From positions 1 through 64,000 of the forward strand of contig CADCXA010000001.1 of assembly GCA_902806565.1 (NCBI GenBank): DNA of 64,000 bases, in the 5' to 3' direction. Position 1 is the first letter of the stretch. Each line of letters opens with the position of its first letter. Position numbers and translations under genes: made by a program. Below, piece by piece: positions 10,724-46,206 of this stretch. Under the pieces are notes generated by a model. The model was not told the origin of the DNA. It saw only the letters and a list, made by a program, of their open reading frames with translations, and did not search any database. Source of the stretch: Hypoxylon rubiginosum. Lineage: Eukaryota > Ascomycota > Sordariomycetes > Xylariales > Hypoxylaceae.

Positions 10724-13700
10724 CTATTCGCGATCTTCCAAACCGAGCAACTTTAAGAACCGTTCGTGGTCTTGCTTCTTCAATGGTTTTGTGAATCCAT
10801 CAGCCGGATTCAGCTCGCTCCTCACGTAATCTACCTTGACGTTGCCTTCAGCGACCTCTTGTCTAATGTAGTGATAATCCTTTCTGATATGACGCTTTTG
10901 CTTATTCACAGCAGTCTCTCGTGACCAAGTGATTGCAGCCATGTTGTCATTTATCAGTGGAATTGGTCCTTCAGGCATCAGCTGAAGTTCTTCTAGGAAG
11001 TTGCGTATCCAAGCTGCCTCTGTAGCGGCTGTAGCCAAAGCTATGTACTCTGCCTCAGCAGAGCTGCGTGCTACCACGTTTTGCAATTTAGATAGCCATG
11101 CCACAGGTGCGCCCGCCAAGAAGAAAACGTATCCGGTTGTTGATTTCGCTGTGCTAGCGTCCCCAGCGTAGCTAGCATCGACGGCTCCGTGTAATCCGAT
11201 ATCGTTGAATATCCGGTGCTCATGCTCCTCCGTCAGCTTCCTATATCGGATCATCTTCTTGGTTGACTTCTTCAGGTATCTCATGACACGCTTGATTCCT
11301 TCAGAATGTTCTGGTGAAGGGTTGCTCATATAGCGTGCCCAGGTTGATACAGCGTAGCTTATATCTGGCCTAGTTACGCATGCTGCAAAGTTGGCCTTTC
11401 CTACCAAAGATGCGTATTCGTAGACCTCTCTCTCATTCGCCCTCTCGCCGCGATCTCTAGGGATTGCGTGGTCCAGCTTCTTAGGTTCGAAAGGCGTGCT
11501 CGTGTGCTTGCAATCTTCAAGCCCACTGCTCTTCAATGCCCTCTCAAGATACTGTTGCTGATCAAGGCGGACCTCTCCGTTGTGAGTAGGTCGAATGATT
11601 CGGACTCCCAAGAACCAATCAGCGTCGCCGAGGTCTGTAACAGGGACGTCCTTCTTGATACTTTCTGCCAGGTTCTTCAGTCTTTGAACGTCTGTGCCGA
11701 ATAGCAGGAAGTCGTCAACGTAGGAGGCTATAATATCCCTTGTCTCTTGGTTGAGATAGACAGCATCATCTGCTTCTAAGGGTTTGTAACCTCGTGTCTT
11801 AAGCAGCTTCCTGACCTTGATCTGCCAAGCGTGGCCAGCCTGCTTTAATCCGTAAAGGGGATTCATCAGCTCGATAATCTTGCTCTCGTCGAACTGATAG
11901 ATTCTTCGTTCTTTCGGATAGGCGTCGAAGTACTCCTTCAGCATAGGGAACAGCTTCATAAAGATGCGTTCCTTCAAGTCTCCATTGAGATATGCCGCTA
12001 TGAAGTCTATCTGCAGGATATCCCATCCGTGTGCTGCGGCCAGAGCCATCAGCATGCGCCAGGCCGCGGCTCTTGCAGTTGTAGCCGTGGTCTCGTTGTA
12101 GTCGACTCCCTTTCTCTGCGTGAATCCTCTCGCACAGATACGGGCTTTGAACTTGTCAAGATCTCCGTTGGATAGGTATTTTTTCTTCAAGACCCATTTG
12201 GCGTCGATCAGGTGCCCGTGAATGGCTTCGGAGGAAGGACTAAACTTGAACGTGCCTCTTTCAAGGTTCTCACGGATCTCCTTGAATATGGCCTGTACCC
12301 ACAGCTCTCGTTCTGCTCCGTTCATGGCTTCTTTGAATGGAGGCTCATTCATGTTGGTTTCGAAGAGTCTGAAGGTTTCGGACATTGTATCGAGGAAGTC
12401 TTGCATGGCGTCTTCAGCGCTGTCTTCCTTCTCGATATCAATGAGGTGGCACATCAGAGCTCTGTACATGTCTGAATGTGCTGTGATAGGTGGATCACCA
12501 TCGCCTGCGAAGATGAAATTGTCAAAATCGTCTTCGGACACGCCCTCTGACGGGTAATTCCCGCCCTCTTGGGTACTGTCCATATTCCGTAACGTCTCGT
12601 AGATGACGTCAGGCTCGTCTGGAGCTTCGCAACACTGCACGGTTGGTCGCTTCTTCTTGGGTCTGCCTCTTTTTCTAGGCTTTGACCCTGTGTCACTGTC
12701 TGTGACATCTTCCTCGACAATATTCTTGTCCTTATTCTGTACGCCTACCTCAGTGGTTTTCTTTCGGTGGCGAAGCCTTTTCTGTACGTGCTCAGGTAGG
12801 GACCTGACCACGTCTCTCGGGTCTGGAGCGCCATTGTCATCTCCTGTGAATTCTTGTGTGATGACATGGGGGGTATCGAGGTATCTACCTCCCTCGATAA
12901 GCCATACTCGGTAGTTGTGCTGGCCTCGGTAGCCAAGTAGAATTCCCTTGGCTCCTCGAGCTTCCATCTTCTCCGCTACATCCCTGGATTCCTTGTCAAT
13001 AAGGACGGAGCATCTGCTCCCAATAATCCTTAGATGTGCGTTGTCGGGTTTGTGCGGCTTATGAGGTTCAAGATCGCTCATATACTTCTCATAAGGGGTG
13101 ACGCCTTCTACAGTTGACTGACCCGTGCGGTTAGTCACGTAGGTGGCTGCCTCCATTGTGTCGTTCCAGAAGCACGTGGGTATATTCATAGCGATATGAG
13201 TTACCCGTGCTGAGTCCTGGATGAACCTAATGGACCGCTCAGGGACTCCGTTCTGGTACTGATTCTTTGGTGTGGAAATGATCAGTTCAATTGCCATTTC
13301 CTGGCAAGCCTTCTCGATAAGGCTCATGCCGAATTCTCTTCCGCCGTCAAGGCGTAGTACCAGCGGTCTCCTGCTACTGCCGTCTTCCTTTGCAGGTAGG
13401 CACTGTAAGGCTTCGTACTTGTGACGGAGATACGTTTCCACGATAACTCCTGCTTTGTCTTTCGTAACGTGAGTCTTGAAGTGCCTATATCTGCTACAAT
13501 CGTCGACGATCATCGTGAAGTAGCGGTCCCCGTTTACCGATTGAGGCTTCAATGAGCCCGTATCACACCAAGTGATTTCTCCCGAGTATTCTGCGCGCAA
13601 CTGCGGGTCCTTTGAAGGTATCTTCGTGATCTTGGCTTGATCACACGCATAGCAAGGTAACGGTTCAATAAGAGCTAAGTCTAAATCGATACCTGTGGTC

Positions 13701-13858
13701 ATTTTGATAGACCACTTCATTCTCTCTGTGCTGGGATGGCATAGACGACGGTGCCAAAGTATCAGCTTCTGGATGGCCTCATCTGTGAGCCTAGAAGTTG
13801 ACATGGCTAGAGATTTCTTCAGTATCTCTCTCAGGTCGTTTATCTCTCGTGCCATCAC
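10724..13858 (-). CDS. pol: Copia Pol: integrase, reverse transcriptase, RNase H
   Basis: This frame starts four codons after the Gag stop, in the same register, at a GTG followed by ATG. Integrase comes first: zinc-binding H36, H41, C69, C72, then the catalytic triad D99, D171, E207, with exactly 35 residues between the last two. A linker at 391-405 carries an AT-hook-like core RGRP flanked by lysines. Reverse transcriptase follows at about 510-770, with YGLKQ near 669 and the active site YVDD at 713-716. RNase H has D894 (VDASYAGD) and the SSAEAEY signature near 932-938. All domains look intact. Pol is most likely made as a Gag-Pol fusion by reading through TAG; independent starting at GTG/ATG is the alternative. 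Confidence 0.93.
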   Translation of the reverse strand: MMAREINDLREILKKSLAMSTSRLTDEAIQKLILWHRRLCHPSTERMKWSIKMTTGIDLDLALIEPLPCYACDQAKITKIPSKDPQLRAEYSGEITWCDTGSLKPQSVNGDRYFTMIVDDCSRYRHFKTHVTKDKAGVIVETYLRHKYEALQCLPAKEDGSSRRPLVLRLDGGREFGMSLIEKACQEMAIELIISTPKNQYQNGVPERSIRFIQDSARVTHIAMNIPTCFWNDTMEAATYVTNRTGQSTVEGVTPYEKYMSDLEPHKPHKPDNAHLRIIGSRCSVLIDKESRDVAEKMEARGAKGILLGYRGQHNYRVWLIEGGRYLDTPHVITQEFTGDDNGAPDPRDVVRSLPEHVQKRLRHRKKTTEVGVQNKDKNIVEEDVTDSDTGSKPRKRGRPKKKRPTVQCCEAPDEPDVIYETLRNMDSTQEGGNYPSEGVSEDDFDNFIFAGDGDPPITAHSDMYRALMCHLIDIEKEDSAEDAMQDFLDTMSETFRLFETNMNEPPFKEAMNGAERELWVQAIFKEIRENLERGTFKFSPSSEAIHGHLIDAKWVLKKKYLSNGDLDKFKARICARGFTQRKGVDYNETTATTARAAAWRMLMALAAAHGWDILQIDFIAAYLNGDLKERIFMKLFPMLKEYFDAYPKERRIYQFDESKIIELMNPLYGLKQAGHAWQIKVRKLLKTRGYKPLEADDAVYLNQETRDIIASYVDDFLLFGTDVQRLKNLAESIKKDVPVTDLGDADWFLGVRIIRPTHNGEVRLDQQQYLERALKSSGLEDCKHTSTPFEPKKLDHAIPRDRGERANEREVYEYASLVGKANFAACVTRPDISYAVSTWARYMSNPSPEHSEGIKRVMRYLKKSTKKMIRYRKLTEEHEHRIFNDIGLHGAVDASYAGDASTAKSTTGYVFFLAGAPVAWLSKLQNVVARSSAEAEYIALATAATEAAWIRNFLEELQLMPEGPIPLINDNMAAITWSRETAVNKQKRHIRKDYHYIRQEVAEGNVKVDYVRSELNPADGFTKPLKKQDHERFLKLLGLEDRE

Positions 13859-13861
13859 CAG

Positions 13862-13876
13862 CTCGTGTCCCTATTG
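13862..13876 (-). promoter_or_regulatory. In-frame TAG between gag and pol, candidate readthrough site
   Basis: On the minus strand the junction reads CAA TAG GGA CAC GAG. Gag-PR and Pol share one register with only this stop between them. TAG followed by G resembles the murine leukaemia virus type of programmed readthrough, and Candida Tca2 also separates gag and pol by one stop. A six-base-pair stem (AGAGAT/ATCTCT) can form about 50 nt downstream. A plain CAG-to-TAG mutation, which is also RIP-type, is the alternative. Confidence 0.55.
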
Positions 13877-16534
13877 GTCGTTCGGGTTGCTGGCAGGCGG
13901 CTCTGGGAGCGTGAGCTCCTGCTTTCCAAATAGCGGAAGGAAGAAGCTGTGTTTTAAGACGTCGAGCTTCGTGAGTACCGTATGGTTGGGGTTCCAAACG
14001 TACTCTCCCTTGATTCGTCCGCCTGCCCTGTATAGTAGATCTCCTGAGAAGATCTTGATGGGAAAGCGTTCTACAAAAGCTGTGAAGTTTAGAGTAGCGA
14101 ATTGCCTTTCGCCATCATGTCCCTTCAGAGCAAAACGGGCTGTGCCCATTTTCGTGACCAATACTGATCCACCGCCTGTGTGAACAAGGTATCCCTTGTC
14201 CGAGACATCTATCACGGTCTTTCGGATGAAGTCTCCTTCGTCGTTGGTGATGTGGATGTTAGATCCTGTATCGAGCAGCAGCTGCTGTCTCATTACAGTC
14301 TCGGTGTGGTAACTCGAATCCGTGCTGAAGGTCTGGAAGAATGACCCAGCAGCATTGCAACGTGTGTTCTGTCCCGTCGGCTGTACCGTTGGGGCCACGT
14401 ATCCTGGATTCTCTTGGAGACGACGCCTGTTATATTCGTTAACCAGGTTGTCTGTCGCTCCTCTGCCGTGGAAACTGCCGCCGCCACCTGCCAAGTCTTC
14501 GGAAGTGGAAGTCGACTGTCGTCGCGACTTGCCGCTCTTTATCTGTTTCCTCGTGGTGTTCGAGGACGAGTTTTGTTGCTGTCCCTTCTTTCCTTTCTTG
14601 TTAGATTCGGGGCAACCTCTCTTTGTGTGACCGTACTTTCCGCAATCGTAACACAAGGGGCCTTTGTCTGGGTCGTAGCTTGGCAAGTGCTTAAATTTGG
14701 ACGGTTTCTCAGGCCTCTTTTTGTTCGCCTGAGTGTTGTGAGCGTTGGAGTTGTTCTTGCCATTGTTATTGCTGCTCTGGCGGTTGTCTTTTCCGATCTT
14801 GCCTCGGAATTCGTTGACGAAGTCGTCCATTATCTCCTGCAAAGTGAACTCGTTCTTGCGCAGGAGTGACTGAGTTTGCTTGACCCAGCCGGTTGCTTTG
14901 TCTTTTACACTTGTAGTGAACATCGTAACCAGCTGATCGGTATCAAACTTAAGCCCTGCGTTCATACAGTTACGCAGCGCGAGTTGCCACTTGGAGATAT
15001 AGGTAACGGGATCGCCTCCTTCGTACTTTTTCTGTAGAAGTTCGTCCCAGAGCTCTCGTTGACGGGCCTTGCCTGAGGAGGCATACGTTTTGCTGAAAGT
15101 CTTAAGCATTTCGGAACCCTTCCTCATGCCACTGACCAGGTTCAGTGGTTGTCGCTTGCAGGTGCGTGAAATGGCTGCTGCCAGGTCTAGTTCGTCAATG
15201 ATAGTAAGCTCTCTGTCTTCCCTGTAGCCGATTCTCTCCAAGCTCAGCATGAGGGCTTCTCGATAAACGTCCCAATTGCTGATCCCCATCAGGTGATTTT
15301 CCTTGTCTAACGTGAAGCTGAAGTGCTTCCAATCAAGCTTTGCTCGATTGCTAGAGGACCTGTGCTTCCTATCTTTCTTGGAAGGCTTCTTCCCATGTTT
15401 TCTGTGTCTTCTTCGATAGGAATGGGAGTCAGTCGAATCGGAATCGTACGAGTCTGAGTCGGACGAGTCTGAGCTTGATGGCGAGCTGGAATCCGAGGGA
15501 CTGGGATTCTCGTGTTCTCTCTGGAGCCGCCTCAAGGACTTCTTGGTTAACGGCTCCTTCTTGCCGCGCTTGTCGCTTGACTTCTCGTCGTCCTTACGGC
15601 TCGACTTGCGGGGCTTTCGTGGTTTGCGGGACTTGTGGTCGGACTCGGAATCGGTATCGGAGTCGGATTTGGGAGGACGTTTCGGCGCCTTTGAAGGCTT
15701 TTTCGAAGGCTTTCGGTGTGAGGATCGAGAAGACTTCCTCATGATCACGGTTTCGCCGTCAGGTTCGGAGTCAGAGTCGGATGGTTCCAAAGATAGAACC
15801 TCTGGTTGAGCTTTTGATGGCTCCCGGGTGGGTTCTCGGGTCTTCGACTTCGCCTTGACGGGAAACGGGGTCGATACGGCGGGCGTTTCGTCACGCCCTG
15901 GTTTGTAGAGTCTGTTGGTTGATGATACTTCGCGTGAGTCTACTACCTTGTTCAGTGGGGATTCGGATTCTCTCTTCTCCTTCCCCTTCAATTTCTCCGT
16001 TGTTGCTTGTTCAACGGCTTGTCGAATCTCTTCTTCTCGGCTGTTGTTGGCATTGTCGACTTGTTTCCTCAACTGCTCGATTAGCCATTCTTGTCCTTCA
16101 AGGACTTCCATTATCCGAGAGTAGTCCATGGCCTTGGGTGGTGCTTTGATGGACTGTTCGGTGGGGTCCTCATTGGAATCTAGGTCGATCAGACTTCCAG
16201 TGGGTTTCCTAACGGGTGCTGCAGAGGATTCTGCAGGGGATTCGGGTTCTGCGTTAGATACCGCAGACTTCATCGATACATCTGGTGTAGCGGCTTTCGC
16301 TGGAGCAGCTTTGGCCAGTCGTGACTCCTCAGCCTGCTCAGCTATCTGCTGCTGTACATTTTCCTCATGGAGGCGGGCATTATCCCTAACTTGTGTGAGT
16401 TCACTCATCCTTTCCAGAGCTGACAGAAACTGGATTTGCTCGGTGGTAAAGCGTGCCAACAGCTCGTCCTGTTTCTCGATCTGTTCTTGTAGTCTGCCGA
16501 TTACGACGCGTTGCTTCTGTTCAGTAGAAGTCAT
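13871..16534 (-). CDS. gag: Copia Gag-protease polyprotein
   Basis: The open frame reaches up to 16621, but its first ATG shares a base with the LTR and its codons cover the primer-binding site, so the ATG at 16532-16534 (residue 30 of the longest frame) is the better start. In longest-frame numbering: coiled-coil-like region 35-105; a long Ser/Asp/Lys/Arg-rich stretch 210-430; a Gag capsid-like region about 430-610; a CCHC zinc knuckle (C657, C660, H665, C670) for RNA binding; and an aspartic protease site DTGSN at 784-788. A full copia Gag-PR, unusually long because of the charged, repetitive N-terminal half. It ends in TAG, and the Pol frame follows in the same register. Confidence 0.92.
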   Translation of the reverse strand: MTSTEQKQRVVIGRLQEQIEKQDELLARFTTEQIQFLSALERMSELTQVRDNARLHEENVQQQIAEQAEESRLAKAAPAKAATPDVSMKSAVSNAEPESPAESSAAPVRKPTGSLIDLDSNEDPTEQSIKAPPKAMDYSRIMEVLEGQEWLIEQLRKQVDNANNSREEEIRQAVEQATTEKLKGKEKRESESPLNKVVDSREVSSTNRLYKPGRDETPAVSTPFPVKAKSKTREPTREPSKAQPEVLSLEPSDSDSEPDGETVIMRKSSRSSHRKPSKKPSKAPKRPPKSDSDTDSESDHKSRKPRKPRKSSRKDDEKSSDKRGKKEPLTKKSLRRLQREHENPSPSDSSSPSSSDSSDSDSYDSDSTDSHSYRRRHRKHGKKPSKKDRKHRSSSNRAKLDWKHFSFTLDKENHLMGISNWDVYREALMLSLERIGYREDRELTIIDELDLAAAISRTCKRQPLNLVSGMRKGSEMLKTFSKTYASSGKARQRELWDELLQKKYEGGDPVTYISKWQLALRNCMNAGLKFDTDQLVTMFTTSVKDKATGWVKQTQSLLRKNEFTLQEIMDDFVNEFRGKIGKDNRQSSNNNGKNNSNAHNTQANKKRPEKPSKFKHLPSYDPDKGPLCYDCGKYGHTKRGCPESNKKGKKGQQQNSSSNTTRKQIKSGKSRRQSTSTSEDLAGGGGSFHGRGATDNLVNEYNRRRLQENPGYVAPTVQPTGQNTRCNAAGSFFQTFSTDSSYHTETVMRQQLLLDTGSNIHITNDEGDFIRKTVIDVSDKGYLVHTGGGSVLVTKMGTARFALKGHDGERQFATLNFTAFVERFPIKIFSGDLLYRAGGRIKGEYVWNPNHTVLTKLDVLKHSFFLPLFGKQELTLPEPPASNPNDQ

Positions 16535-16600
16535 ACGTTCCTGATACCTTGATGCAAAAGGACACGCAAACGCCTTGTCTTCTCTCGATAAAAATAACAA

Positions 16601-16620
16601 GAATACGGGTGGAGCTACCA
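16601..16620 (-). other. Primer-binding site of copia element
   Basis: Directly inside the 5' LTR the minus strand reads TGGTAGCTCCACCC. The TGG pairs with a tRNA CCA end, and TGGTAGC is complementary to a tRNA ending GCUACCA, as in fungal initiator methionine tRNA, the usual copia primer. Later bases fit less certainly. Confidence 0.7.
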
Positions 16621-16831
16621 TATAACCGGGAGGTGGTTATCCGGACGCTCGTGGAAAAGATCCTATGATTCGTTGCTACTGCGAAGAAACTTGCTGGGTA
16701 TCTACCCGATCTAAATACTATGCTGTAGGCACCAGTGTTACATCTCTGGAATACTCTCCGGTATTCCACCGGCTGCCTTTGTTGCATGCCTTATGTTCCA
16801 CAGCTGTCTAGGCAACCGCAGGCTGCCAACA
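16621..16831 (-). repeat. 5' LTR of copia element
   Basis: 211-bp partner of 10488-10698. It should carry the element's promoter and the transcript start. No mismatch to the other LTR was found by eye, so insertion is recent on an evolutionary scale. Confidence 0.95.
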
Positions 16832-22937: not shown

Positions 22938-22942
22938 CCTAG

Positions 22943-23184
22943 TGTCACGAGACCGTTCTAGCAATAAGGGTAACTACAACGTTGTTCCACGAGGAGCTAT
23001 AAACCTAACAGCTACAAGCGTCTTGGTATATACAGGAACAACGGACAAAGAAGCCTATCAGGCCAGGGAGCTCCGCCTCCGATATCCCTGGTGGTGCAAA
23101 CACCCGATATCGCTATTCCAAGGGTCATGATACCTCTTGGATAGTAAGGGCTAAGGTCTGTGTAACAAGACCTAAGTCCTGACA
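22943..23184 (+). mobile_element. Solo LTR, family TGTCACGAG...CCTGACA
   Basis: A 242-bp unit starts TGTCACGAG and ends CCTGACA, so it has TGTCA/TGACA inverted ends. It is flanked by the 5-bp target duplication CCTAG (22938-22942, 23185-23189). It is closely related along its length to 24807-25049. With no internal region beside it, it is a solo LTR left by recombination of a full element, probably Ty3/gypsy-like (an inference from the ends). Confidence 0.88.
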
Positions 23185-23624: not shown

Positions 23625-24016
23625 ATGACGGACGAGACGACCCCTGGCATCAAAGATGAGGATTGTCTGTTCCATCGACCTATGTCTCGTCATGAAGAGA
23701 TGCAAAAAGAAAAACAGTTAACTACCCACTGTTGCAATGCGATACTTATCTGGAACTATGCGACACCGTCAGATGTTTTCCTGACACGGAGGCGCAGGAG
23801 CTTCTGGAAAAGGTCGAGGAGAAATACCAAGACATACTCAAAGTTATAGACCTATGGGATACCCGCGTAAAACGTCCCATGGCCGTCAATGATAACCAAA
23901 AATATAAAGTGGCTACCGCCCAGAAATACATAGAGTATTTAAGAAATGTTAAGTCCGTCCTTAGCGCCGTCTTGGACCAGACGTCCGAACAGGACCACCA
24001 CTCTGATGATAATTGA
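23625..24016 (+). pseudogene. Small gene relic, hypothetical
   Basis: Two overlapping plus-strand frames look protein-like: 23625 onward, starting MTDETTPGIKDED, and about 23700-24016, containing ELLEKVEEKYQDILKVIDLW and ending in TGA. The second has no proper ATG (only a TTG at 23732) and reads as an amphipathic, possibly coiled-coil segment of about 90 residues. A frameshift or an unplaced intron separates the two, so this is a gene fragment or an intron-containing small gene. I do not recognise the family. About 100 bp downstream begins sequence shared with the 3' flank of the gene at 38560-40191, which suggests it is the tail of a relative of that subtelomeric gene set. Confidence 0.4.
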
Positions 24017-24108
24017 CTTTAAGCTTATCCTATCTATTCTTTCCCTTCTACGTCCTCTCTCATCTCCCCATTCTCTTCTTCATTGTCATCTCTCGTCTAA
24101 CAGGTATA

Positions 24109-24202
24109 TGACCCTAATAGAGATGGCAGGGGAGAAGACCGCGGCATGACTTGTAGAGCATTACTTAATTGTCACAGCTTTTAGGTAGTTTTCGTTCCCC
24201 AA
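24109..24202 (+). repeat. 3'-flank sequence shared with 40357-40461
   Basis: It starts GACCCTAATAGAGATGGCAG and continues with GAGAAGACCGC and GTGACTTGT-like words to TTTTCGTTCCC. The order is the same at 40357-40461 downstream of the 543-residue protein gene. A duplicated gene end. Confidence 0.65.
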
Positions 24203-24441
24203 CTATTCGCAGCCTTATATTAAAAAGGCGCGTACTGTTCCCACCTGCTTGGCGCCCTATATTTCCCTTGTCTTATTCCGCCTTTGAATTTGACTCTTAG
24301 TGGCGTGGAGCCGGGGATAATTTCCTACAGAAGTCGAACACTTGTCTGACTCTGCACACGGCTTCGACTCACTTGACCTGTCAAGACCAACCTTCCAGCT
24401 TTAGCATATAATGGGTTTCGGCGTGTGCTAGACATTTTATA

Positions 24442-24600
24442 TGCGAAAGGTTCGCTGCCAAAAGGATATGTTGCGAAGAGTTCGCATCGCTTTTACCTAA
24501 GACCGCGAATAGTTCGCGTGTAATATTGAATTAGGGTGCCAAACGTTCGCGGCCTATTATTGGGAACCGCTTGATTGGTATAGTTCGCAAAGGTTCACGC
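24442..24600. repeat. Array A of the 15-bp near-palindrome TGCGAANNNTTCGCA
   Basis: Units start at 24442, 24472, 24504 and 24537, with a degenerate unit near 24587; steps are 30, 32, 33 and about 50 bp. The first units keep the GCGAA...TTCGC arms with different centres (AGG, GAG, TAG); the fourth reads TGCCAAACGTTCGCG. Spacers are unrelated to each other. Same motif as arrays B and C. Confidence 0.85.
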
Positions 24601-24801
24601 ACTACTGTTTTGATTCCACCACTGAATATTAGCTCCTGAATTTTCCTTTCTTACTGGTCTACTGCTGCTACCGCCGATGGACAGCCGCTGTCCGAGTGTG
24701 ATATCTATACGATACGCGGCGGCGGCGAGATGGCTTCCCATGCTTGGACGTGTTCAGTTGCGACGGCGGGAGGCAGCCTAAGAACGAGGAGAGGCAGGTC
24801 G
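24601..24801. other. Unassigned sequence between array A and solo LTR
   Basis: Contains a short GGC-rich run near 24718. No gene or element recognised. Confidence 0.4.
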
Positions 24802-24806
24802 AGGTG

Positions 24807-25049
24807 TGTCACGAGACCGTTCAAGCGATATGGGTAACTAAGACGTTGTTCCACGAGGAGCTATAAACCTAACAGCTACGAGCGTCTTGGTATATACAGG
24901 AACGACGGACAAAGAAGCCCATCAGGCCAGAGAGCTCTACCTCCGATATCCCTAGTGGTGTAAACACCTGATATCGCTATTCCAGGGGTCACGATACCTC
25001 CTGGATAGTAAGGGCTAAGGTTTTGTGTAACAAGACCTATGTCCTGACA
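24807..25049 (+). mobile_element. Solo LTR, second copy
   Basis: 243 bp, TGTCACGAG...CCTGACA, flanked by the target duplication AGGTG (24802-24806, 25050-25054). It is closely related to 22943-23184 and differs mainly by transitions. It lies between palindrome arrays A and B, so it may have inserted into a once continuous array. Confidence 0.88.
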
Positions 25050-25171
25050 AGGTGATGTATGAATAAGGGCTGATCCAGGGGCACCAGAGCGAGGACTGGG
25101 GCAAGACATGAAAGGAGAGCTTCTTGTCCGTTTCGCTATCAACGCGAGATATCCTGGTCGATAACGGGGCC

Positions 25172-25575
25172 CGCGAAGAGTTCGCATGCTATTTTTCGGC
25201 CTTGCGAACTCTTCGCAATCTTGCATAAAAGGGGCGCGAAGAGTTCGCAGGGCCGCGAACCTTTCGCAACCGTTTTACTCAAGATTGCGAAAAGCTCGCG
25301 GTCTATTACCAGGGAGTGTTAAATATTTCCACTAGTTAGAAGAGGTTCGCAAATGGAAAAAGGAGTCCGCATCTTAGACTGTTCGGCCCGCAGATCGTCC
25401 GTAGGACATTTACGAGTGCGAACTATTCGCAACATATTTACGAGAGTGCGAACTCCTCGCATGCTATCCTCAAAGACCGCGAAAAGCTCGCAGATTTATT
25501 CCTATGACCTGCGAAGAGTTCGCGATGGCCGCAAAAAGCTCGCACCGTCTCTCTAAAGGGTGCGAACTCTTCGCG
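25172..25575. repeat. Array B of the 15-bp near-palindrome
   Basis: Clear units start at 25172, 25203, 25235, 25254, 25286, 25417, 25447, 25478, 25510, 25530 and 25561, with degenerate ones near 25337 and 25357. Outside the degenerate middle the steps are 31, 32, 19, 32 and then 30, 31, 32, 20, 31 bp. Typical unit: TGCGAAGAGTTCGCG. Several units have CTCGC in the right arm. Open frames that cross the array are by-products of the repeat. Confidence 0.9.
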
Positions 25576-27276
25576 GCCCCATTTCACCTGCCGTTGCAAG
25601 GGGTCATGGTCTATGCCTCGCAGACCTCTCCAGGTGGTAGGGCTACAGCTAAGCTATCTCCTCTGTTGGACAATAAAGAAATCTCGTCTCGGGTATATCC
25701 TAGACATCAAATCGTAAAGGCATACATGATGTTCTGGGGTGCCACATCTGGGCTACCACTGGCCCTTTCTTGTGGCGGTCTGTGTCAATCCTACTGGTGG
25801 ACTAGTGTTCTCGGGAGCCTGGTGTATGGAAAGTTGACAAGAGGAAACATACCCCTGGAGTGACTTTGCTGTTTACTAAGGGTTTTAACCCACTTGTCAA
25901 TATCTTAAGACGTCATTTCCGTGTTCTCATCTCAAGTTGAAGGCGACGATTTCAAAAGAGAATTTGAATTTGCCAAAAGAGTATTCAAAATCGTGGATCA
26001 GGGAACTTGAGTAAAACCTCGAGGTATCTGAAAGGGTGCTGAAAGGGTTTGATGCATGCTCGAACCATGACTCTGAACCTCCGAGTGTTTACTTAGCACT
26101 ACGCCCTGGGCTGTTGAAAGCGTGCGCAAGATCGTCCCTGGGTGTTCCTCTTCTATCAAGGCCTCTTCAAGCTCTTTACTCTCGGCTATCCAGAGAAACT
26201 AAGGTCAAGTTAGATGAATAAGGGTATGAAAATAGGCTTTCTTTGAAGTTATGGTGGAAGTGGAATGGGCCGGATAGTGTGTAGGCGGTAATAGAGGAAT
26301 AACGGATATATATAGACGGGCATATGGCGAACAAATAAAAGGCATTAAGCTTGATGAGCTTTCTTTTTTCCCCTCATCCCATCTAGGTCCAGAGATGAGG
26401 AGCGTTCATAGCTGTGTCCCTAGTGACAGTACCGAAGGCCTGCGGGATATTTTCTAAAAAAACAAGTCAGGCCCCTTAGCTGGTCTTCGACCGCTGTCAA
26501 GATTCTAGCCTTCTGCCATTTAACCCCTGGGACGAGAAGCTTGCAATGATGAGTGTTGGCTATGTCTCGATGATAACCATGCGATACGAGAAACAATTCT
26601 GAACCTGAGGGGCTCTTAAGCTCCAAGTATACAAGAGGCCCGCAAAAAGGGGCTTATCTCCTATGCTACCCCTTCCCGCATAATAGCGAAGTTACTGCGT
26701 CAACGATCTTCGGAGACCTAGGGGCCTGAGGGGACTAGAAATTCCCGAGTATATCACTGCTAGAGGTATTGGGGGGAGCAGTTGGAGTCCATATGTCGGA
26801 CATCGAGATGTCACTTGCTATATGCATAGTTCGGTGCTCGACAAACCGGCTACGCCCGTCGTCGGGCGAGAATGAGGTCTAGCTCACTCGACATGACCTA
26901 CGAGCACCAGCAATCCGTCACTTAATGTCACTTGATGGCTGAGCAATAAACCTGTCGCACTTGGTAGTGGTCGACACGAAAGCTGTGTAAAATCTTGCTA
27001 TTCCATTTTGAGATTGCTTCCCGCACTAATCTCCACCGTTGAAGCCATTCCGATTGAGTGACCTGGTGCTAGAACTGTCCAAAGTTCACTCTCTTCTTAT
27101 ACGGCACGACGCTCGTTTCTTAGGCGCATGTCATAGCAATTCGAGGATCATGGAGACTTCTACATGGTCTAGATAGGACGAGCAAATTGTTACAAGCAGC
27201 TCCGGGAAGTTGACTCTCGCGGCACCCTCCGCCGTTGCCGCAGGTTACAAGAGTGGCTATTAACTTTTCAGAAGAT
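25576..27276. other. Unassigned sequence between arrays B and C
   Basis: About 1.7 kb, GC-balanced. The open frames are short and unsupported (the longest, 25504-25863, begins inside array B). The only recognisable item is a possible LTR remnant near 26560-26660. Confidence 0.5.
26560..26660 (+). mobile_element. Possible degenerate LTR remnant
   Basis: The word order ACCATGCGATA, GAAACAA, GAACCTGAG and AAGTATACAAGAGGC resembles 46504-46620, which in turn resembles the middle of the solo LTRs. The ends cannot be placed and there is no target duplication. Confidence 0.35.
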
Positions 27277-27829
27277 GGTCGAATTTTCGCACTCTGGAAA
27301 AAGGGGTTGCGAGGAGTTCGCACTCTCAAAGATTTATACTGCGAAGAGTTCGCAGCCCCGCGAAGTTTTCGCACTCTTCTAGACAGATGCTGCGAAAGGT
27401 TCGCGGTACTTATCATTGAGTATGCGAATTCTTCGCAGCCTGGGAAAGGAGGCGCGAACATTTCGCGCTGCAAAAAGAGGAGCGCGAACTCTTCGCAACA
27501 AACAAGTTTTCGCATGCCCTGGAAATTCATCATACTGTCAAGATATCAAGGCATGAAAAGTTCGCATCCCTTACAATTGAAGTGCGAACCCTTCGCAGTT
27601 TAGAACAAGAGGCGCGAACTTATCGCGCTTCAAAAGGAAATGCTGCGAATAGTTCGCAGTCCCGTGAGCTTTTCGCACTTACTGCGAGCTATTCAAGCCT
27701 GGTCCAAGTATTCGCGTACCCTAGAAATTAAAGTGCGAACTCTTCGCAGAGGTTGCTAACTTCTCGCAGCTTTCGAAAGTAAGCTGCGAACTCCTCGCTG
27801 TCCAGGAAAGGGAGTGCGAACTTTTCGCA
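27277..27829. repeat. Array C of the 15-bp near-palindrome, about 20 units
   Basis: Units start at 27277, 27308, 27340, 27359, 27391, 27423, 27453, 27483, 27500, 27552, 27583, 27613, 27644, 27663, 27683, 27702, 27734, 27754, 27785 and 27815. Consensus TGCGAANNNTTCGCA; some units (27500, 27552, 27683, 27702) are degenerate in one arm. Steps are 17-20 or 30-32 bp, with a single 52. The centre is free, often GAG or its complement CTC, so units occur in both orientations. Spacer sequences are unrelated. CpG and CpA are kept, so the array is not RIP-mutated. Confidence 0.92.
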
Positions 27830-28194
27830 GTTCCTCAAACCTTTTGCTGCCGAAGAAAATGAAAATAGTAATGCTGAAAAGCAGCATCGTGGTAAAATCA
27901 TATGGCAACACCGCTATAACTTAAGGACCATCACGTATCGCTCACCACTATCAAGAGATTCGAAACGTTTAAATCAAGGTCCGCGTTCAACGGACAAGAC
28001 GTACACAGGACAAGCACAAGCATTACCCACCCAATTGGTCCGATGTCACTTACATCACGCAATAGTCCAGTGGTCCTAGAATGAAGTCAAGAGTCAGACG
28101 TAGTAGTGCGCATCGAAAATCTTTCAAGGCAATGCCAATCTATTCCACTCCCACGAGAAATGAGGAGACAGGAAACCCCCCAAGTAGCTTTATG
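27830..28194. other. Unassigned sequence
   Basis: GC-balanced. No open frame, repeat unit or RNA gene recognised. Confidence 0.45.
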
Positions 28195-28612
28195 TCACAA
28201 CGTCCTGAAGAGAAGCAGCCCCGACAGAGTCAGATCGGCTCTTAGATTCTCCAGCTTGGGAATATATCCAATATGCTGGCAAATATCATCGAGGTTCGTA
28301 GACTGAAGTCGTCTTAGCCCATCAAATCCGGTGTAGACCCTGAAATGTCGGCTTCTCGGTTGAATCGGATCTATCCCCTGAAGGCGATCACGCAGTCCGA
28401 TGCCGGTTTCTTGTCTCACGAGATCTTCAGGAGCTGTGTCCACAGGTCCATTAGTTTATGCACTCCACGAGGCGTGTAAGTGTTGTAGTGTTGCTAGAAT
28501 CGCTGTGCCTTGCGTGATACCTTCTATCGCAGCCATTGAGCCCTCTCGGATGGAGCCAATGATACATGCTGCCAGTTTTTCTTCGTCTATCTTCGTGGTG
28601 TGCTCGCGATCT
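28195..28612 (-). pseudogene. Gene relic with one in-frame stop, hypothetical
   Basis: On the minus strand one register reads as plausible protein from about 28612 to 28195, broken by a single TAA near 28455. The upstream half includes KIDEEKLAACIIGSIREGS. The downstream half starts after the stop and runs 80 residues. Other registers are less protein-like. I do not recognise the family. It could be a C-terminal fragment, because stops precede it. Confidence 0.35.
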
Positions 28613-28614
28613 TC

Positions 28615-28700
28615 GTCCGACGCTAAATCCCAATCCTAATCCTGTTTTAATGCCCCCGCCACCAAACGTCAGAAGCAATAACAAGACCCGGACGCGTATA
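28615..28700 (+). pseudogene. Fragment of the charged-repeat region of the 914-residue protein family
   Basis: The plus strand from about 28617 (GACGCTAAATCCCAATCC ... AAACGTCAGAAGCAA) closely follows 30510-30560 and 30420-30465 in the gene at 30255-32999, which encode its Asp/Ser/Arg-rich repeats. An orphan piece of another paralog, about 1.6 kb upstream of the intact gene. Confidence 0.45.
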
Positions 28701-28765: not shown

Positions 28766-29080
28766 CCCACGTGGCAAAAGCGCCTGGTTGTATGTGGCCC
28801 ATGTATTGCCGTGCATGGGAACATAAATGGGTTCGAGTCCCATCGTGGTTTAACTATCCGATCCTTGGGGTGGGTTTTTTATCTCCCTTTGAGGCTCGCT
28901 AGGCGTTGGGACTCGGGAGGCTGGTTTTCCTAAAACAAAATGGATCAGCTAAGCTAGCTCTGATTAAAGGCCCCTATATAAAGCAAGCGAAAGGAAGAAA
29001 TACACACGAGCAGGAACAGCGGTGGATTCCACGAATAGCGCGTAACGTGAAGGTTCCAGAGCCTTTGTCTCCCGAACTTC
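28766..29080 (+). mobile_element. tRNA-derived SINE, copy 1 (damaged)
   Basis: Starts CCCACGTGGC and keeps the B-box-like GGGTTCGAGTCCC, then a body shared with 33420-33875: AAATGGATCAGCTA, AAAGGCCCCTATATA, AAAGCAAGCGAA, AGCGGTGGATT. About ten bases of the A box are deleted, so it is probably silent. Similarity fades after about 29080, and the 3' end of the full copy is not found. Confidence 0.7.
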
Positions 29081-30254: not shown

Positions 30255-32999
30255 ATGACGAAGTACAAAGGAAAAGGCCGCGACGGCCAGTCTAGATCAT
30301 CGACAACCGCTACGACTTCGCGTAATGCAGCCAATACCTCAGCAACAGCCAGTCGTAAGACAGGTGCCGGCAAACGCGCCCGTAAGAGTGATACCTCAGA
30401 TGTAGATTCTGATGCCAAACTTGACGCTGAATCCCAACCCCGATCCCGCCACAATGCCAAACGTCACAAGAGACAGCAGCAAGACTTGGACTCGGATGTA
30501 GACACCGACACTAGATCCCGACTCCAATCCTACCGCAATGCCTCCGACAAACGTCAGAAGAAGAAGAAGCAGCAAGACTCGGACTCGGATACAGAATCCG
30601 ATGTTAGATACCAATCGCGATCCCGAAAGCCGCTTCCATCCAAGTCCTCCAAGACACGACATGCCTCATACTCAGATACAGAATCTGACATTGTTCCTCG
30701 CCGATCCCGTCACAAGACGAGTTCACCCAAACGTAAGATACGACACGACTCCTCTCATGACGATTCACCTCCATCGGACGACGACTCGCCCCCCTCGTCC
30801 CAATCCTCCTCTGCCGATGAAGGGAGTAGAATAAAAAAGAAGAGTGAGACGGGTCAGGGGAAGGACAAGCATAACAACAATGGCAAGAAGGACGAAAAGG
30901 ATAAGGGAAAAGAGAATGACGAACTCCAGGTCGTGATGAAAGGAATGAGAAAGAAGGAGAATAATCGGATTGCAGTCGCGATGTCTTCGGCCAGAGATTA
31001 CATGAAGAAACACTTTCCGGCCATGACTAAGGAACGCTTCGAGAAGTTAGCCCCCAAGTATCCCCATGGATTTACGCAGGAGGGGTACGAGGTGGCTGAG
31101 GCGAAGTGGATGGTCGATCCCCTCAGACCCCTTCTCTTAGGACAACATCAACGTTTTCGAGAGTCCTTCCTTGCCGTCTACCGTACACTCCTGCGGTATT
31201 ACAACTGCCTTTATGAGGACTTCATAGGACCGAGATTCCAGCTCCAATACGACAATGGCGATAACCCTAAAGTTATTCTACACGGCGACAGGGACGAAGA
31301 CGCTAAGCAGATTATATACGACCCTTTCCCGTCTAAGGCCTTCTTTGACAATCTGAATTGTCTCCTTTTACAACCCGTGTGGTTTGGGAACCTCGAGCGG
31401 CTAGCCACCTGTTTACAGTTTGTGAATATACTACGAACCAACGATACCTGCCCATGGAACTTGGTAGATTGCGACGATGAAAGCTTATTTTTCAAGACCT
31501 GGCAACGCGTGGTCAAGGAGAACTTAGATGCCGAGAAGCCCACAGAAGACCTTTTTGCGCAAGTCAAGGCGAGGTTCGGCAACCAGGGCCTCTACTGTGC
31601 ACTGTTCGACCAGATTATCGATTCTGTGCGAGCCAAGCGCCGGCCATCCGAGGACCACACTTCAAAGCGCAGGAGCAACGGTGATCCTTACTTCATCAAG
31701 GCCGTAGATCTCACTATTCTCATGCACGCCCTTGATAACATTGGTTATTTTGGGATCCCTTTGCTACATACTGCTTGCTTTACAGAGGCCGCCGTAAAGT
31801 TTTCGAGACCAGATCAGGATTACCCGCGCGCCAGCCAATTTACTGAGGCGCGAGACCAAGAGATCATCTACACTAGGATGATGCGTCAAAGAGTCACCAA
31901 TGATATCAGCAAGGACGCCATACAGGGCGACGGTACTCTCAACGACATTCGCGACGATGGCAATAGGCCACCGGAGCCTATCGCCAACGTGTCAGAGCAA
32001 CGAGCAAGGGGCTCCATGACTCTGAGACAGAGAAGCAACTCGTGTGCAGACTCCTCATTCTCTCATCCCAAGGAAGCGAGAAAGGCCGAGGTAGGCCACG
32101 AATTGTCTCCTGTTGAAGACGTATCTACCGAAGGACGAGGCTTACCTACGGCCAACCCACCCCCCCGGCGTGAGATTCCTAGCATGTCCGTTCCATTTAC
32201 GGAACCGGCCGAAAGCATCCTTACTCCGGAGCGCGCATCGACCAACATTCAGTCGCCGAAGGTAAACATAGAAAGGCGGGTGTCGCCGCAGCCAAGTAGC
32301 AAGAACTCATCCCAGAGTACCAAGCCAATGCATCCCCCCACACCTCATTCTAATGCTCCGTTCGACACCAGAGGAATACAGTCTCTAGCCGTTAGTCGCA
32401 ACCCCCCTTCGATTACCACAATGAAGCCTTTGGGACCCAATCGCATCCTTGCAACGGAAGGCCAAAGGGATACTAGAGGAATACAATCTCCTGCCTTTGG
32501 TCGCGACGGTCTTTCGAATACCAGAATGCGGCCTTCTGAACCCGATCGAATCCCTGCCGGGGGACGTCCACACAATGGTGCTCATGATAGTCGGCCGACA
32601 CATCGTAACGACAATCTGTTCGGGACAAGTTCCTTAGCTTCGAGTGCTAGTAGCCTATCTCAGCCGCAAGTCGACTCTGCGCCGGTGAAGAGGTTGGCAA
32701 AAAGGAACGATGAGATATTGCCAGCTGGGAATAGACCAACATCTACGCGCGCAATTGATAATCGACCTTCCTTGTCGGCCGAAGATATTCTCGAAATCGC
32801 TATCAAAGAAGAAGGGGAAGTGGATGAGAACGATGACGAGGAGGATGTTGATAAGACTTTCCCTGATCACTCGAAGGACAGACCAAGTAATGGAGACCAG
32901 AAAAAGAAGTGGAGAGCGAGAGGCAAGCGAGGAAGTGGTATTAATAAGAAACAACGGCTACTATCTGAAAGGCACAATGCAAGCCATTCTCGCTGGTAG
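30255..32999 (+). CDS. Subtelomeric family protein, long paralog (914 aa), unknown function
   Basis: An intron-less frame starting ATG after a CT-rich leader. Residues 1-235 are disordered, with Ser/Asp runs alternating with Arg/Lys, and share RKTGAGK with the paralog at 48323. Residues about 245-550 form the conserved domain: KKHFPAMTKERFEKLAPKYP, DPLRPLLLGQHQ, AVYRTLLRYYNCLYEDFIGP, DPYFIKA and EIIYTRMMR all have near-identical counterparts. The remaining ~360 residues are a disordered tail absent from the paralog, with two ~35-residue repeats starting DTRGIQS (about 703-772), an acidic stretch near 856-875 and a basic, nuclear-signal-like end. No catalytic motif seen. Composition suggests a nuclear protein. 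I do not recognise the domain. Confidence 0.85.
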   Translation: MTKYKGKGRDGQSRSSTTATTSRNAANTSATASRKTGAGKRARKSDTSDVDSDAKLDAESQPRSRHNAKRHKRQQQDLDSDVDTDTRSRLQSYRNASDKRQKKKKQQDSDSDTESDVRYQSRSRKPLPSKSSKTRHASYSDTESDIVPRRSRHKTSSPKRKIRHDSSHDDSPPSDDDSPPSSQSSSADEGSRIKKKSETGQGKDKHNNNGKKDEKDKGKENDELQVVMKGMRKKENNRIAVAMSSARDYMKKHFPAMTKERFEKLAPKYPHGFTQEGYEVAEAKWMVDPLRPLLLGQHQRFRESFLAVYRTLLRYYNCLYEDFIGPRFQLQYDNGDNPKVILHGDRDEDAKQIIYDPFPSKAFFDNLNCLLLQPVWFGNLERLATCLQFVNILRTNDTCPWNLVDCDDESLFFKTWQRVVKENLDAEKPTEDLFAQVKARFGNQGLYCALFDQIIDSVRAKRRPSEDHTSKRRSNGDPYFIKAVDLTILMHALDNIGYFGIPLLHTACFTEAAVKFSRPDQDYPRASQFTEARDQEIIYTRMMRQRVTNDISKDAIQGDGTLNDIRDDGNRPPEPIANVSEQRARGSMTLRQRSNSCADSSFSHPKEARKAEVGHELSPVEDVSTEGRGLPTANPPPRREIPSMSVPFTEPAESILTPERASTNIQSPKVNIERRVSPQPSSKNSSQSTKPMHPPTPHSNAPFDTRGIQSLAVSRNPPSITTMKPLGPNRILATEGQRDTRGIQSPAFGRDGLSNTRMRPSEPDRIPAGGRPHNGAHDSRPTHRNDNLFGTSSLASSASSLSQPQVDSAPVKRLAKRNDEILPAGNRPTSTRAIDNRPSLSAEDILEIAIKEEGEVDENDDEEDVDKTFPDHSKDRPSNGDQKKKWRARGKRGSGINKKQRLLSERHNASHSRW

Positions 33000-33403: not shown

Positions 33404-33419
33404 TTAAAGGGGCAAATAA

Positions 33420-33875
33420 CCCACGTGGCGCAGTGGTTAAAAGCGCCTGGCTGTGTGTGGCCCATGCACTGCAATACATAGGGACATAAGTGGGTTCGAA
33501 TCCCGCCGTGGTTTATTTAACCATCCGATTCTCAGGTTTTTTCATCCCACTTTAAAGCTCGCCGGGCGTCGGGAGGGTGGTTTCTAAGACGTTAGAATAG
33601 GCGGGCTCGGAGAAGGGTTTTTCCTGAAGCGAAATGGATCAGCTAGTTAAAGCTGGCGCCCTGGTTAGAAAAAGCCCCTATATCTGTATAAAGCAAGCGA
33701 AGGGGAGGAAATATAAATAAGTAGAAATAGCGGTGGATTTTTATATATTAGGTAAAACTTTAGCTCTGTCTCCTTAAAGGTACTCCAGACATCCTATACG
33801 CCATTATTACACGTCGCTATACCAATAAATATATTATATATCTAGGTAGTTAGCCGGACGTAAACAAATTCATCA
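33420..33875 (+). mobile_element. tRNA-derived SINE, full-length copy 2
   Basis: A 456-bp unit with a tRNA-like head (A box, B box, CCACG...CGTGG ends) and a ~360-bp body. It is flanked by a 16-bp direct repeat, TTAAAGGGGCAAATAA at 33404-33419 and 33876-33891, with one mismatch, which is a target duplication of the long, variable type made by SINEs. The body matches copies at 28766 and 50808, including the 3' end GTAGTTAGCCGGAC(G/A)TAAAC shared with the latter. Not a working tRNA gene: A and B boxes are about 20 bases further apart than usual, and the acceptor stem is bulged. Confidence 0.85.
33426..33503 (+). promoter_or_regulatory. RNA polymerase III A and B boxes of the SINE
   Basis: The A box TGGCGCAGTGG (33426-33436) and B box GGTTCGAATCC (33493-33503) match internal pol III promoter consensus. 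They start 67 bp apart, against roughly 44 in an intron-less tRNA. Confidence 0.75.
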
Positions 33876-36167: not shown

Positions 36168-36317
36168 CAGGGTCCAAATCAACCACACTAATACACTGAT
36201 CATAATAGTATTATATGGCTTGGACTTATACTTATGCAAGACTTCCGGCTTATATATGCAATACGGCCATATAACGTCTTAAAGATCAGTGTATTAGTGT
36301 GGTTGATTTGGACCCTG
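36168..36317. mobile_element. hAT-type MITE, 150 bp, complete
   Basis: Perfect 34-bp terminal inverted repeats (36168-36201 and 36284-36317) starting CAGGGTCCAAATC enclose 82 bp of AT-rich sequence. The element is flanked by an exact 8-bp target duplication AGTTGAGC (36160-36167, 36318-36325). Eight-base duplications and CAGGG ends are typical of hAT transposons, so an absent hAT transposase most likely moved it. No coding capacity. Confidence 0.93.
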
Positions 36318-45278: not shown

Positions 45279-45725
45279 GACGCTTCTAGGATACGATTGA
45301 AACCTAAAAAGAATCCGGAGGGGGTGCGTTCGGTGCTCGGTTTAAGTCCATTCCGGCTTGAGATAGAGGGTAGCTTAGCTAAGGTGCTATCAACTAGAGA
45401 AACGGTGCCTAGGAAGTAATGTTAACGACTGTTTATATACGAGCGAGCGTTCTTACTTACCGTAGCCTTGGCCTCCGCAGTTTCTTTCGAGTTAACCTTG
45501 TTGTCCATAGCTTTGATCTTAGAACGAATACAATTATTTAGCGAATCTGCCGTAGAAAGGACTTACCCGATAGACTCCACGGCGTTGGACTGTGGAGGGC
45601 AAAGACCAGGTCTTGGAGTGAAAGCAATTACTTGGCATATCGAAGACATGGATAAGTTTTCCTTGGTAGAACCTAGACCCAAAGGCACTCCTTAATTGAG
45701 ATCGATCTAAACGGAATGGATGTAA

Positions 45726-46028
45726 TACCAGGCCGCCACCGACGGCCCATTTGCCGCTCTCAACCCGTCCACCCTCGCCTCAGCCTTCAAACTCGTCGGC
45801 TCACCTGGGCAGAATCTGGCACAGCTTGAGGATTGTACCCAGATGGGTTGCCCTGCACTGTATACGCCGATCACCTGCCGCATACACACAGAAATCACGA
45901 TTGAGAATCGCGCCTGCGCGCCTGAGTTGGATGCCGTGGCTAAACTGAGGGTACCACGGTCCTTGGTGGTGGGCGTCGCGTACCGCCGATCATACCTCCG
46001 CGTCCGCGACACGACGGGCGCGCTCTAA
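45726..46028 (+). pseudogene. Orphan frame related in inverted copy to 46040-46206
   Basis: About 100 codons are open after a TAA at 45723-45725, ending in TAA. It contains NPSTLASAFK and a Cys-containing stretch. The same decapeptide is encoded on the opposite strand at 46125-46176. Lacks a clear start, so probably a fragment. Family not recognised. Confidence 0.4.
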
Positions 46029-46039
46029 TCGAGCGTAGC

Positions 46040-46206
46040 CTAGTTGATCTCGCATGCGACCGCGGATAGCGCCGCCTCTATGGCCTTTGGCATGTCGTAG
46101 CCTTTATCGTCGAGGCTGTCGGACTTGAAGGCTGAGGCGAGGGTTGACGGGTTGCGGGTAGCAAATGGGACGTCGGCAACGTCGATTGCAGTACGGGAGA
46201 GGTAGG
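46040..46206 (-). pseudogene. Second, opposite-strand copy of the NPSTLASAFK fragment
   Basis: A minus-strand frame of about 55 codons ending in TAG. It contains VPFATRNPSTLASAFK, matching the plus-strand fragment at 45740-45790 in protein and DNA, then diverges. Two relatives in tail-to-tail orientation. Confidence 0.4.

What the first reader, a model, noticed from the sequence alone, without database searches (positions are those of the whole stretch)
27277..27829. Array of ~20 near-palindromes with spacing limited to about two or three helical turns
Seen: a 15-bp motif TGCGAANNNTTCGCA recurs about 20 times in 553 bp. Steps between unit starts are 31, 32, 19, 32, 32, 30, 30, 17, 52, 31, 30, 31, 19, 20, 19, 32, 20, 31, 30. 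Arms are conserved while spacers and the three central bases vary. Inference: steps near 20 and 31 bp keep every unit on a similar face of DNA, as expected for cooperative binding of a dimeric protein, or for a tract used in homology or chromatin recognition. Neurospora RIP is reported to sense interspersed homology with about one-helical-turn periodicity, so such a tract could matter in that setting, yet this array is itself not mutated. I know of no fungal element described this way.
Basis: partly seen in the sequence, partly recalled or inferred. Interest (0 to 1): 0.88.

Follow-up and report, generated by a model that had tools for sequence, protein, structure and literature searches.

The report
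Phased palindrome array in fungal subtelomere

Summary
The array is three clusters in 3.6 kb (24197-27829) with 33 matrix-called sites; all 26 steps under 60 bp are 19, 20 or 30-33 bp. It is the only such array found in a 48.3-Mb genome, probably Hypoxylon rubiginosum or a near relative. Tandem Repeats Finder calls no repeat in the clusters. In two duplicated block pairs arms are 45/48 identical, centres plus spacers 19/31. The arms do not co-vary, so a hairpin role is unsupported. Spacers follow a hidden layout, site-N-YYY-(AT-rich)-RRR-N-site, implying a longer operator. Best explanation: a locus-specific operator array bound cooperatively by an unidentified dimeric protein, probably a local cis-control region. 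The RIP idea is not supported; strict same-face phasing is only approximate. The same dyad at 33- and 21-bp steps inside a phage gene keeps an origin-like rival alive. No binding protein, transcript or second strain was available, so function is inferred.

The parts
27277..27829 (.).
25172..25575 (.). Cluster 2: 11 matrix-called sites (25172, 25203, 25235, 25254, 25286, 25417, 25447, 25478, 25510, 25530, 25561) and weak units 25317, 25337; bounded by GGGGCCC...GGCCCC
24197..24590 (.). Cluster 1, the most decayed: 6 matrix-called sites 24197, 24229, 24442, 24472, 24504, 24537 and weak unit 24575
27423..27478 (.). Block duplicated inside the array (79% to 27583-27638, 68% to 27785-27840); arms kept, spacers diverged
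27583..27638 (.). Second copy of that block
27336..27375 (.). Short-step block (19-bp step), similar to 27640-27679 (85%) and 25231-25270 (73%)
24807..25049 (+). Solo LTR inserted between clusters 1 and 2, with 5-bp target duplication AGGTG; not part of the array
23696..24016 (+). Gene A (106-aa open frame with coding signal, probably a last exon), ends 180 bp before cluster 1; no relatives found
30255..32999 (+). Gene B, 914-aa protein of a Hypoxylaceae family of unknown function, starts 2.4 kb after cluster 3; nearest strong coding segment downstream

Best explanation
The array is a locus-specific operator tract. Each unit is a 15-bp dyad, YGCGAA-NNN-TTCGCR, inside a longer operator of about 23 bp with purines 5' and pyrimidines 3' (RRRN...NYYY), joined to the next by about 8 bp of A+T-rich linker; in the short (19-20 bp) steps the linker and most of the flanks are missing and the cores nearly abut. 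The filament most likely works as a local cis-control region (activation, repression or a chromatin state) for this subtelomeric gene island, with gene B (30255) and gene A (ending 24016) as the nearest candidates. SHOWN: the sites, spacing, layout, uniqueness among the patterns searched in this genome, arm constraint in duplicated blocks, absence of covariation. INFERRED: the dimeric protein, cooperativity, the regulatory role and its target.
For: All 26 steps under 60 bp fall in {19, 20, 30-33}; 25 in clusters of three or more sites against 4.9 expected, maximum 15 in 20,000 random placements. In two duplicated block pairs arms are 45/48 identical, centre plus spacer 19/31, Fisher P = 7e-4. 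Clusters 2 and 3 in register: arms 61/72, spacers 21/70, at shuffle level. In 21 long spacers, purine/pyrimidine edges score 106/126 against 63 +/- 5.5, maximum 81 in 5000 shuffles, and the central A+T fraction is 0.74 against 0.60 +/- 0.03. The outer CpG position drifts (left: C 14, T 23 of 40) while inner CpGs are mostly kept (28 of 40 left, 37 of 40 right). No excess of Watson-Crick pairing across the dyad: 223 against 227.5 +/- 7.8. No coding segment scored between 24.02 and 29.07 kb in a rough codon scan. A site set confined to one locus fits a dedicated local binder.
Against: No DNA-binding protein was identified: 21 different stop-to-stop frames of the island gave no DNA-binding Pfam family, but many shorter frames were not scanned and genes with introns were seen only in pieces. 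Gene B's two relatives in the genome have no array, so the array is not needed by that family. The array lies 2.4 kb from the nearest strong gene start. Spacers share slightly more identity than shuffles (0.498 against 0.465 +/- 0.008), so part of the conservation may be common descent. The duplicated blocks were chosen by similarity, which mildly biases the arm/spacer test. No second strain, expression or binding data.
Confidence: 0.5

Rival explanations
1. A degenerate minisatellite without function: a palindromic 31-bp unit spread by block duplication and is decaying.
For: Some blocks are clearly duplicated; spacer similarity is slightly above shuffles; there is one locus only, in subtelomeric DNA; cluster 1 is decayed.
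Against: TRF at score 30 lists three short rows in 24000-28200, none overlapping a cluster. Arms are conserved while centres and spacers in the same duplicated blocks are not. Step lengths stay in two narrow classes although spacers are near saturation. Inner CpGs are mostly kept while the outer position drifts.
Confidence: 0.2
2. An iteron-type replication or maintenance element, such as the remnant of an integrated plasmid or virus: the sites bind a replicon-encoded dimer, as EBNA1 binds oriP or an initiator binds phage iterons.
For: The architecture is like oriP: about 20 imperfect palindromes at about 30-bp steps (recalled for the family of repeats) plus closer pairs (dyad-symmetry sites 21 bp apart centre to centre, passage in PMC3798644). 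One viral contig (L157) has the dyad TGCGAA-N3-TTCGCA at steps 33, 21 and 21 with unlike spacers, and another (L161) at 21, inside genes that are 47% identical to each other; that such a gene is a replication initiator with an internal origin is my inference. One-off integration would fit the single locus.
Against: No replication, partition or viral protein in the island frames scanned against Pfam. The phage gene has no PHROG or Pfam match, and those loci were picked by the motif itself, so the resemblance may be chance. The 558-aa paralogue of gene B gave a low-confidence model (mean pLDDT 55) with no significant fold match.
Confidence: 0.16
3. Subterminal transposase-binding sites of a large DNA transposon.
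For: Subterminal arrays of short motifs are known in En/Spm- and hAT-type elements (recalled). Cluster 2 has matching inverted ends, GGGGCCC...GGCCCC.
Against: The 25570-28680 stretch has no second copy, only three matches of 47-76 bp; exact RIP-converted site pairs number 1 against 24 for the control; no transposase in the frames scanned; I saw no target duplication at the cluster 2 ends.
Confidence: 0.05
4. A transcribed row of hairpins (structured or small-RNA-producing transcript), or cruciforms.
For: Each unit could form a 5-9 bp stem with a 3-nt loop (inspection).
Against: No excess pairing at any of 14 symmetric positions (smallest P 0.22), total over 12 of them 223 Watson-Crick pairs against 227.5 +/- 7.8 for re-paired halves; no Rfam match at gathering score in 10-52 kb.
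Confidence: 0.04
5. A tract used for homology recognition by RIP or a related pairing process.
For: The window holds blocks of about 5% GC with a RIP-like dinucleotide index; RIP senses homologous triplets every 11 or 12 bp (PMC4858203, abstract and other passages). The grid count in cluster 3 is one above the best of 20 shuffles (6 against 5).
Against: Six of about 20 grid points in 220 bp is far from the continuous pattern described, and the best lag, 304, is that of a duplicated block; the array's index (0.97-1.24) is that of the unmutated island (1.06), not of the AT-rich blocks (0.2).
Confidence: 0.03

Closest known systems
EBV oriP (family of repeats plus dyad symmetry), bound by EBNA1
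   Same: About 20 imperfect palindromes at about 30-bp steps (recalled) and closer sites about 20 bp apart (21 bp, PMC3798644 passage).
   Different: Different motif (15-bp dyad with NNN centre); chromosomal fungal subtelomere; no replicon proteins found; long and short steps are mixed in one tract; steps are 30-33 and 19-20, not 30 and 21.
Dyads inside a phage gene in IMG/VR contigs L157 and L161 (found here; not a named family)
   Same: The same outer dyad TGCGAA...TTCGCA at 33-, 21- and 21-bp steps with unlike spacers in L157, and a 21-bp step in L161.
   Different: Two to four adjacent sites only, inside a coding frame of unknown family; A+T centre; here about 33 sites in non-coding DNA.
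Operator tracts of dimeric fungal transcription factors (e.g. QA-1F sites, GAL4 UAS; recalled)
   Same: Dyad sites with free central bases, clustered between genes.
   Different: About 33 sites in 3.6 kb at one locus with only two spacings; the motif matches no fungal factor that I can recall; a half-site resemblance to Swi4 boxes (CRCGAAA) is weak and recalled.
Bacterial Fur-type boxes, 7-1-7 inverted repeats (recalled)
   Same: 15-bp dyads; some viral loci found by the motif (L190, L195, L199) carry Fur-like rows at 22-36 bp steps.
   Different: Fur boxes have T-N-A centres; here centres are mostly GAG/CTC/AAG/CTT.
Minisatellites or tandem repeats
   Same: Successive copies with some block duplication.
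   Different: Spacers mostly not alignable; no TRF row in the clusters; arms preferentially kept.

Membership tests
Ordinary tandem repeat / minisatellite | Consecutive units alignable along their whole length | tested here: not met
   TRF, score 30 or more: three short rows in 24000-28200, none in a cluster; clusters 2 and 3 spacers at shuffle level; only some blocks align
Ordinary tandem repeat / minisatellite | Divergence spread evenly over the unit | tested here: not met
   Arms 45/48, centre plus spacer 19/31, P = 7e-4 in two block pairs
oriP-like iteron element | Many palindromic sites at fixed helical-scale steps | tested here: met
   26 of 26 short steps in {19, 20, 30-33}
oriP-like iteron element | Linked gene for the dimeric site-binding protein | tested here: inconclusive
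   No DNA-binding Pfam family in 21 different island frames; spliced genes were not assembled and shorter frames not scanned
oriP-like iteron element | Origin or maintenance activity | not testable with these tools
   needs a plasmid assay
Transcription-factor operator tract | Dyad with conserved half-sites and free centre, no covariation | tested here: met
Transcription-factor operator tract | Known factor binding this motif | not tested
   No motif library on hand; the text search TGCGAA + TTCGCA + palindrom returned 56 papers, of which the 20 listed are not about a fungal factor by title
Transposon subterminal array | Several copies, terminal repeats, target duplication, transposase | tested here: not met
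   only short inverted ends of cluster 2 were seen
Hairpin RNA array | Compensatory changes in stems | tested here: not met
RIP interspersed homology | Homologous triplets every 11-12 bp over hundreds of bp | tested here: not met
   6 of about 20 grid points, cluster 3 only; criterion from passages

The most novel reading that the evidence does not exclude
A chromosomal, oriP-like maintenance or origin module in a filamentous fungus: a dedicated dimeric protein polymerises on a two-distance operator tract at a single subtelomere to control replication, tethering or chromatin state of that chromosome end or of a once-independent replicon.
Probability: 0.15. Interest if true: 0.85.

Novelty: new variant of a known kind. 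Interest (0 to 1): 0.55.

Why it matters
If the array is bound, it would be a natural fungal counterpart of the operator arrays that laboratories build by hand, with an unknown, highly specific DNA-binding protein that could be isolated by simple pull-down. It would show how a single subtelomeric island can be placed under its own control element, and how a tract with 30 or more near-identical sites can persist in a genome with RIP-like blocks: its homology is broken into short arms.

Tried and rejected
RIP/homology tract: grid count one above the shuffle maximum, no RIP signature, exact RIP-converted pairs 1 against 24 for the control. RNA hairpins: no covariation, no Rfam hit. Transposon ends: no second copy; the repeat between clusters 1 and 2 is an unrelated solo LTR. 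Left/right asymmetry of arms: visible on my hand-made list of 39 sites but not on the 33 matrix-called ones (11 against 8 mismatches), so dropped. Shared step order of clusters 2 and 3 (31, 32, 19, 32): could arise by chance from the step frequencies (my own arithmetic, no call), so not used. Gene B as the binder: Pfam negative, structure of its paralogue of low confidence, fold search without a significant match. With 10 of 12 matches, 108 have two and the maximum is nine, a 21-bp repeat with near-identical spacers in a Bacteroidales contig. A second viral scan gave 22 loci, 4 of them seen before; over the 31 viral loci the maximum is seven sites of 9 of 12 matches in 500 bp, a Fur-like row. 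Literature: searches showed no description of this array in their listings; only passages of PMC4858203 and PMC3798644 were read, all other papers were seen only as listings.

Full report
WHERE IT IS. The window starts at a telomere (CCCTAA repeats at 1-144) and alternates between AT-rich blocks of about 5% GC and normal islands at about 10.7-16.6 and 22.6-51.2 kb. The array begins about 1.6 kb inside the second island. The genome has 48.27 Mb in 70 contigs. A 4-hydroxyphenylpyruvate dioxygenase frame from contig C27 is 100% identical over 94% of the query to a protein named Hypoxylon rubiginosum, so the organism is that species or a very near one; this is inference from one gene.

OBSERVATION. 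Every unit start and step in the finding is exact. With a symmetric matrix built from the 19 sites YGCGAANNNTTCGCR of the window (all in the array, so partly circular), 33 sites are called in the array and 4 elsewhere in the 28.6-kb island, with 4.8 expected for the island. They form three clusters: 24197-24590, 25172-25575 and 27277-27829. Steps under 60 bp are 32 (8), 31 (6), 30 (6), 33 (1), 19 (3) and 20 (2): 26 of 26 in two classes. Random placement of the same number of sites gives 4.9 on average and never more than 15 in 20,000 trials, against 25 observed in clusters of three or more sites.

ONE LOCUS. The genome holds 53 perfect GCGAANNNTTCGC sites, 20 in this array and 33 elsewhere; the backward control has 26. 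Paired sites: 13 forward and 13 reverse, all here, control 1 and 1. Relaxed pairs: 11 forward, 10 here and one isolated at C24, control 1. An extended form with two purines and two pyrimidines outside: 4, all here, control 0. The 25570-28680 stretch has no second copy, only three matches of 47-76 bp. Exact, fully RIP-converted site pairs: 1, against 24 for the control.

NOT A TANDEM REPEAT, NOT A HAIRPIN. Tandem Repeats Finder at score 30 lists three short rows in 24000-28200, none in a cluster. Some blocks are diverged duplicates: 27423-27478 with 27583-27638 (79%) and 27785-27840 (68%), and 27336-27375 with 27640-27679 (85%) and 25231-25270 (73%). In two such pairs (27423/27583 and 27340/27644) arms are 45/48 identical, centres plus spacers 19/31 (Fisher P = 7e-4); pooled over all six non-independent comparisons, arms 128/144, centres 24/36, spacers 34/57. 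The blocks were found by similarity, so the test is mildly biased. Clusters 2 and 3 in register (lag 2105) have arms 61/72, centres 7/18 and spacers 21/70, the last at shuffle level (17.9 +/- 3.6, P = 0.23). Against full independence, mean identity of 23 hand-listed long spacers is 0.498 with 0.465 +/- 0.008 in shuffles. Symmetric positions do not co-vary (40 hand-listed sites, 223 against 227.5 +/- 7.8), which speaks for duplex recognition and against a folded RNA or hairpin.

HIDDEN LAYOUT. In the 21 long spacers between matrix-called sites, positions 2-4 next to a site are pyrimidine on the 3' side (17, 16, 18 of 21) and purine on the 5' side (18, 16, 21 of 21), and positions 4-8 from a site edge are 64-79% A+T. 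The edge score is 106/126 against 63 +/- 5.5 in shuffles, maximum 81 of 5000; the central A+T fraction is 0.738 against 0.595 +/- 0.027. The pattern holds in each cluster (13/18, 33/42, 54/60 over 20 of the 21 spacers). The operator is therefore nearer 23 bp, with an A+T linker of about 8 bp. The five short spacers (GGGC, ATGGC, GCCC, GTCC, GAGGT) lack the linker. The outer CpG position is C in 14 and T in 23 of 40 sites on the left, while the inner CpG is kept in 28 of 40 (left) and 37 of 40 (right), as expected if the core is held by selection; the 40 include hand-listed weak sites.

SURROUNDINGS. A rough codon-usage scan trained on nine long frames finds no coding segment from 24.02 to 29.07 kb. 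Gene A ends at 24016 and has no detectable relative. Gene B at 30255 (914 aa) has named relatives in Hypoxylon and Daldinia, a paralogue at 48323, and a distant relative on C32 found with that paralogue. No array lies beside the other copies. A solo LTR with duplication AGGTG sits between clusters 1 and 2. Pfam scans covered 27 submissions, that is 23 different frames, 21 of them in the island; this is only a part of all frames of 70 aa or more, and spliced genes were seen only in pieces. They gave the Copia domains, an SR-25 match just above its cut-off in the paralogue (43 against 40 bits), a few matches below cut-off (among them a zinc knuckle in the Copia frame), and no DNA-binding family in the island.

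MECHANISM. I favour cooperative loading of a dimer on a locus-specific operator tract acting as a local cis-control region (0.5). The binding step itself I hold at about 0.75; the regulatory purpose is inferred.

COMPARISON. The nearest architecture that I know is EBV oriP, with about 20 palindromes at about 30-bp steps (recalled) and dyad-symmetry sites 21 bp apart (passage in PMC3798644). Scans for the paired motif in IMG/VR brought one contig (L157) with the same outer dyad at steps 33, 21 and 21 and another (L161) at 21; in both it lies inside a gene, and the two genes are 47% identical, without PHROG or Pfam match. An initiator gene with an internal origin is my inference. The loci were chosen by the motif, so this is a lead, not a test. 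The array works like such tracts on paper; membership is not claimed, because no linked binding protein or replicon function was found. The RIP connection fails its own criterion (passages of PMC4858203). The listings of searches showed no description of this element; the library is open-access only.

Noticed in passing
24807-25049 and 22942-23184: Two solo-LTR-like copies of a family of about 243 bp with some 40 matches in the genome (40 of 81 candidates scored), several 98-99% identical to the copy at 22942; the copy at 24807 has a 5-bp target duplication.
   Followed up: partly
10724-16621: Copia-type retroelement in two long open frames on the minus strand, in a normal-GC island between AT-rich blocks of about 5% GC.
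   Followed up: no
30255-32999 and 48323-49999: Diverged paralogues (50% protein identity) of a Hypoxylaceae protein family without known domains; parts of their upstream 140 bp are also 74-93% alike.
   Followed up: partly
33418-33515, 28776-28859, 51091-51167: A predicted tRNA-His gene with a similar stretch at 28776 and an inverted one near 51.1 kb; parts of the tail beyond the tRNA (33.5-33.9 kb) are also repeated inverted at 50.8-51.1 kb, like a tRNA-headed repeat.
   Followed up: no
45651-46361 and 36168-36317: Inverted repeats with arms 87-88% complementary (67-nt arms 577 nt apart; 52-nt arms 46 nt apart).
   Followed up: no
L048, L050, L068, L079, L089, L101, L105, L112: An actinomycete MAG (JPNG_maxbin.062) has the paired palindrome with the same 30-bp length on eight listed contigs, suggesting a dispersed short palindromic repeat.
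   Followed up: no
L157:1245-2291 and L161:8804-9709: A phage gene of unknown family (47% identity between the two) carries TGCGAA...TTCGCA dyads at 33- and 21-bp steps inside its coding frame, perhaps an internal replication origin.
   Followed up: partly
L190, L195, L199: Viral contigs with rows of Fur-like boxes (TGCGAATGATTCTCA, TGAGAATGATTATCA) at 22-36 bp steps.
   Followed up: no
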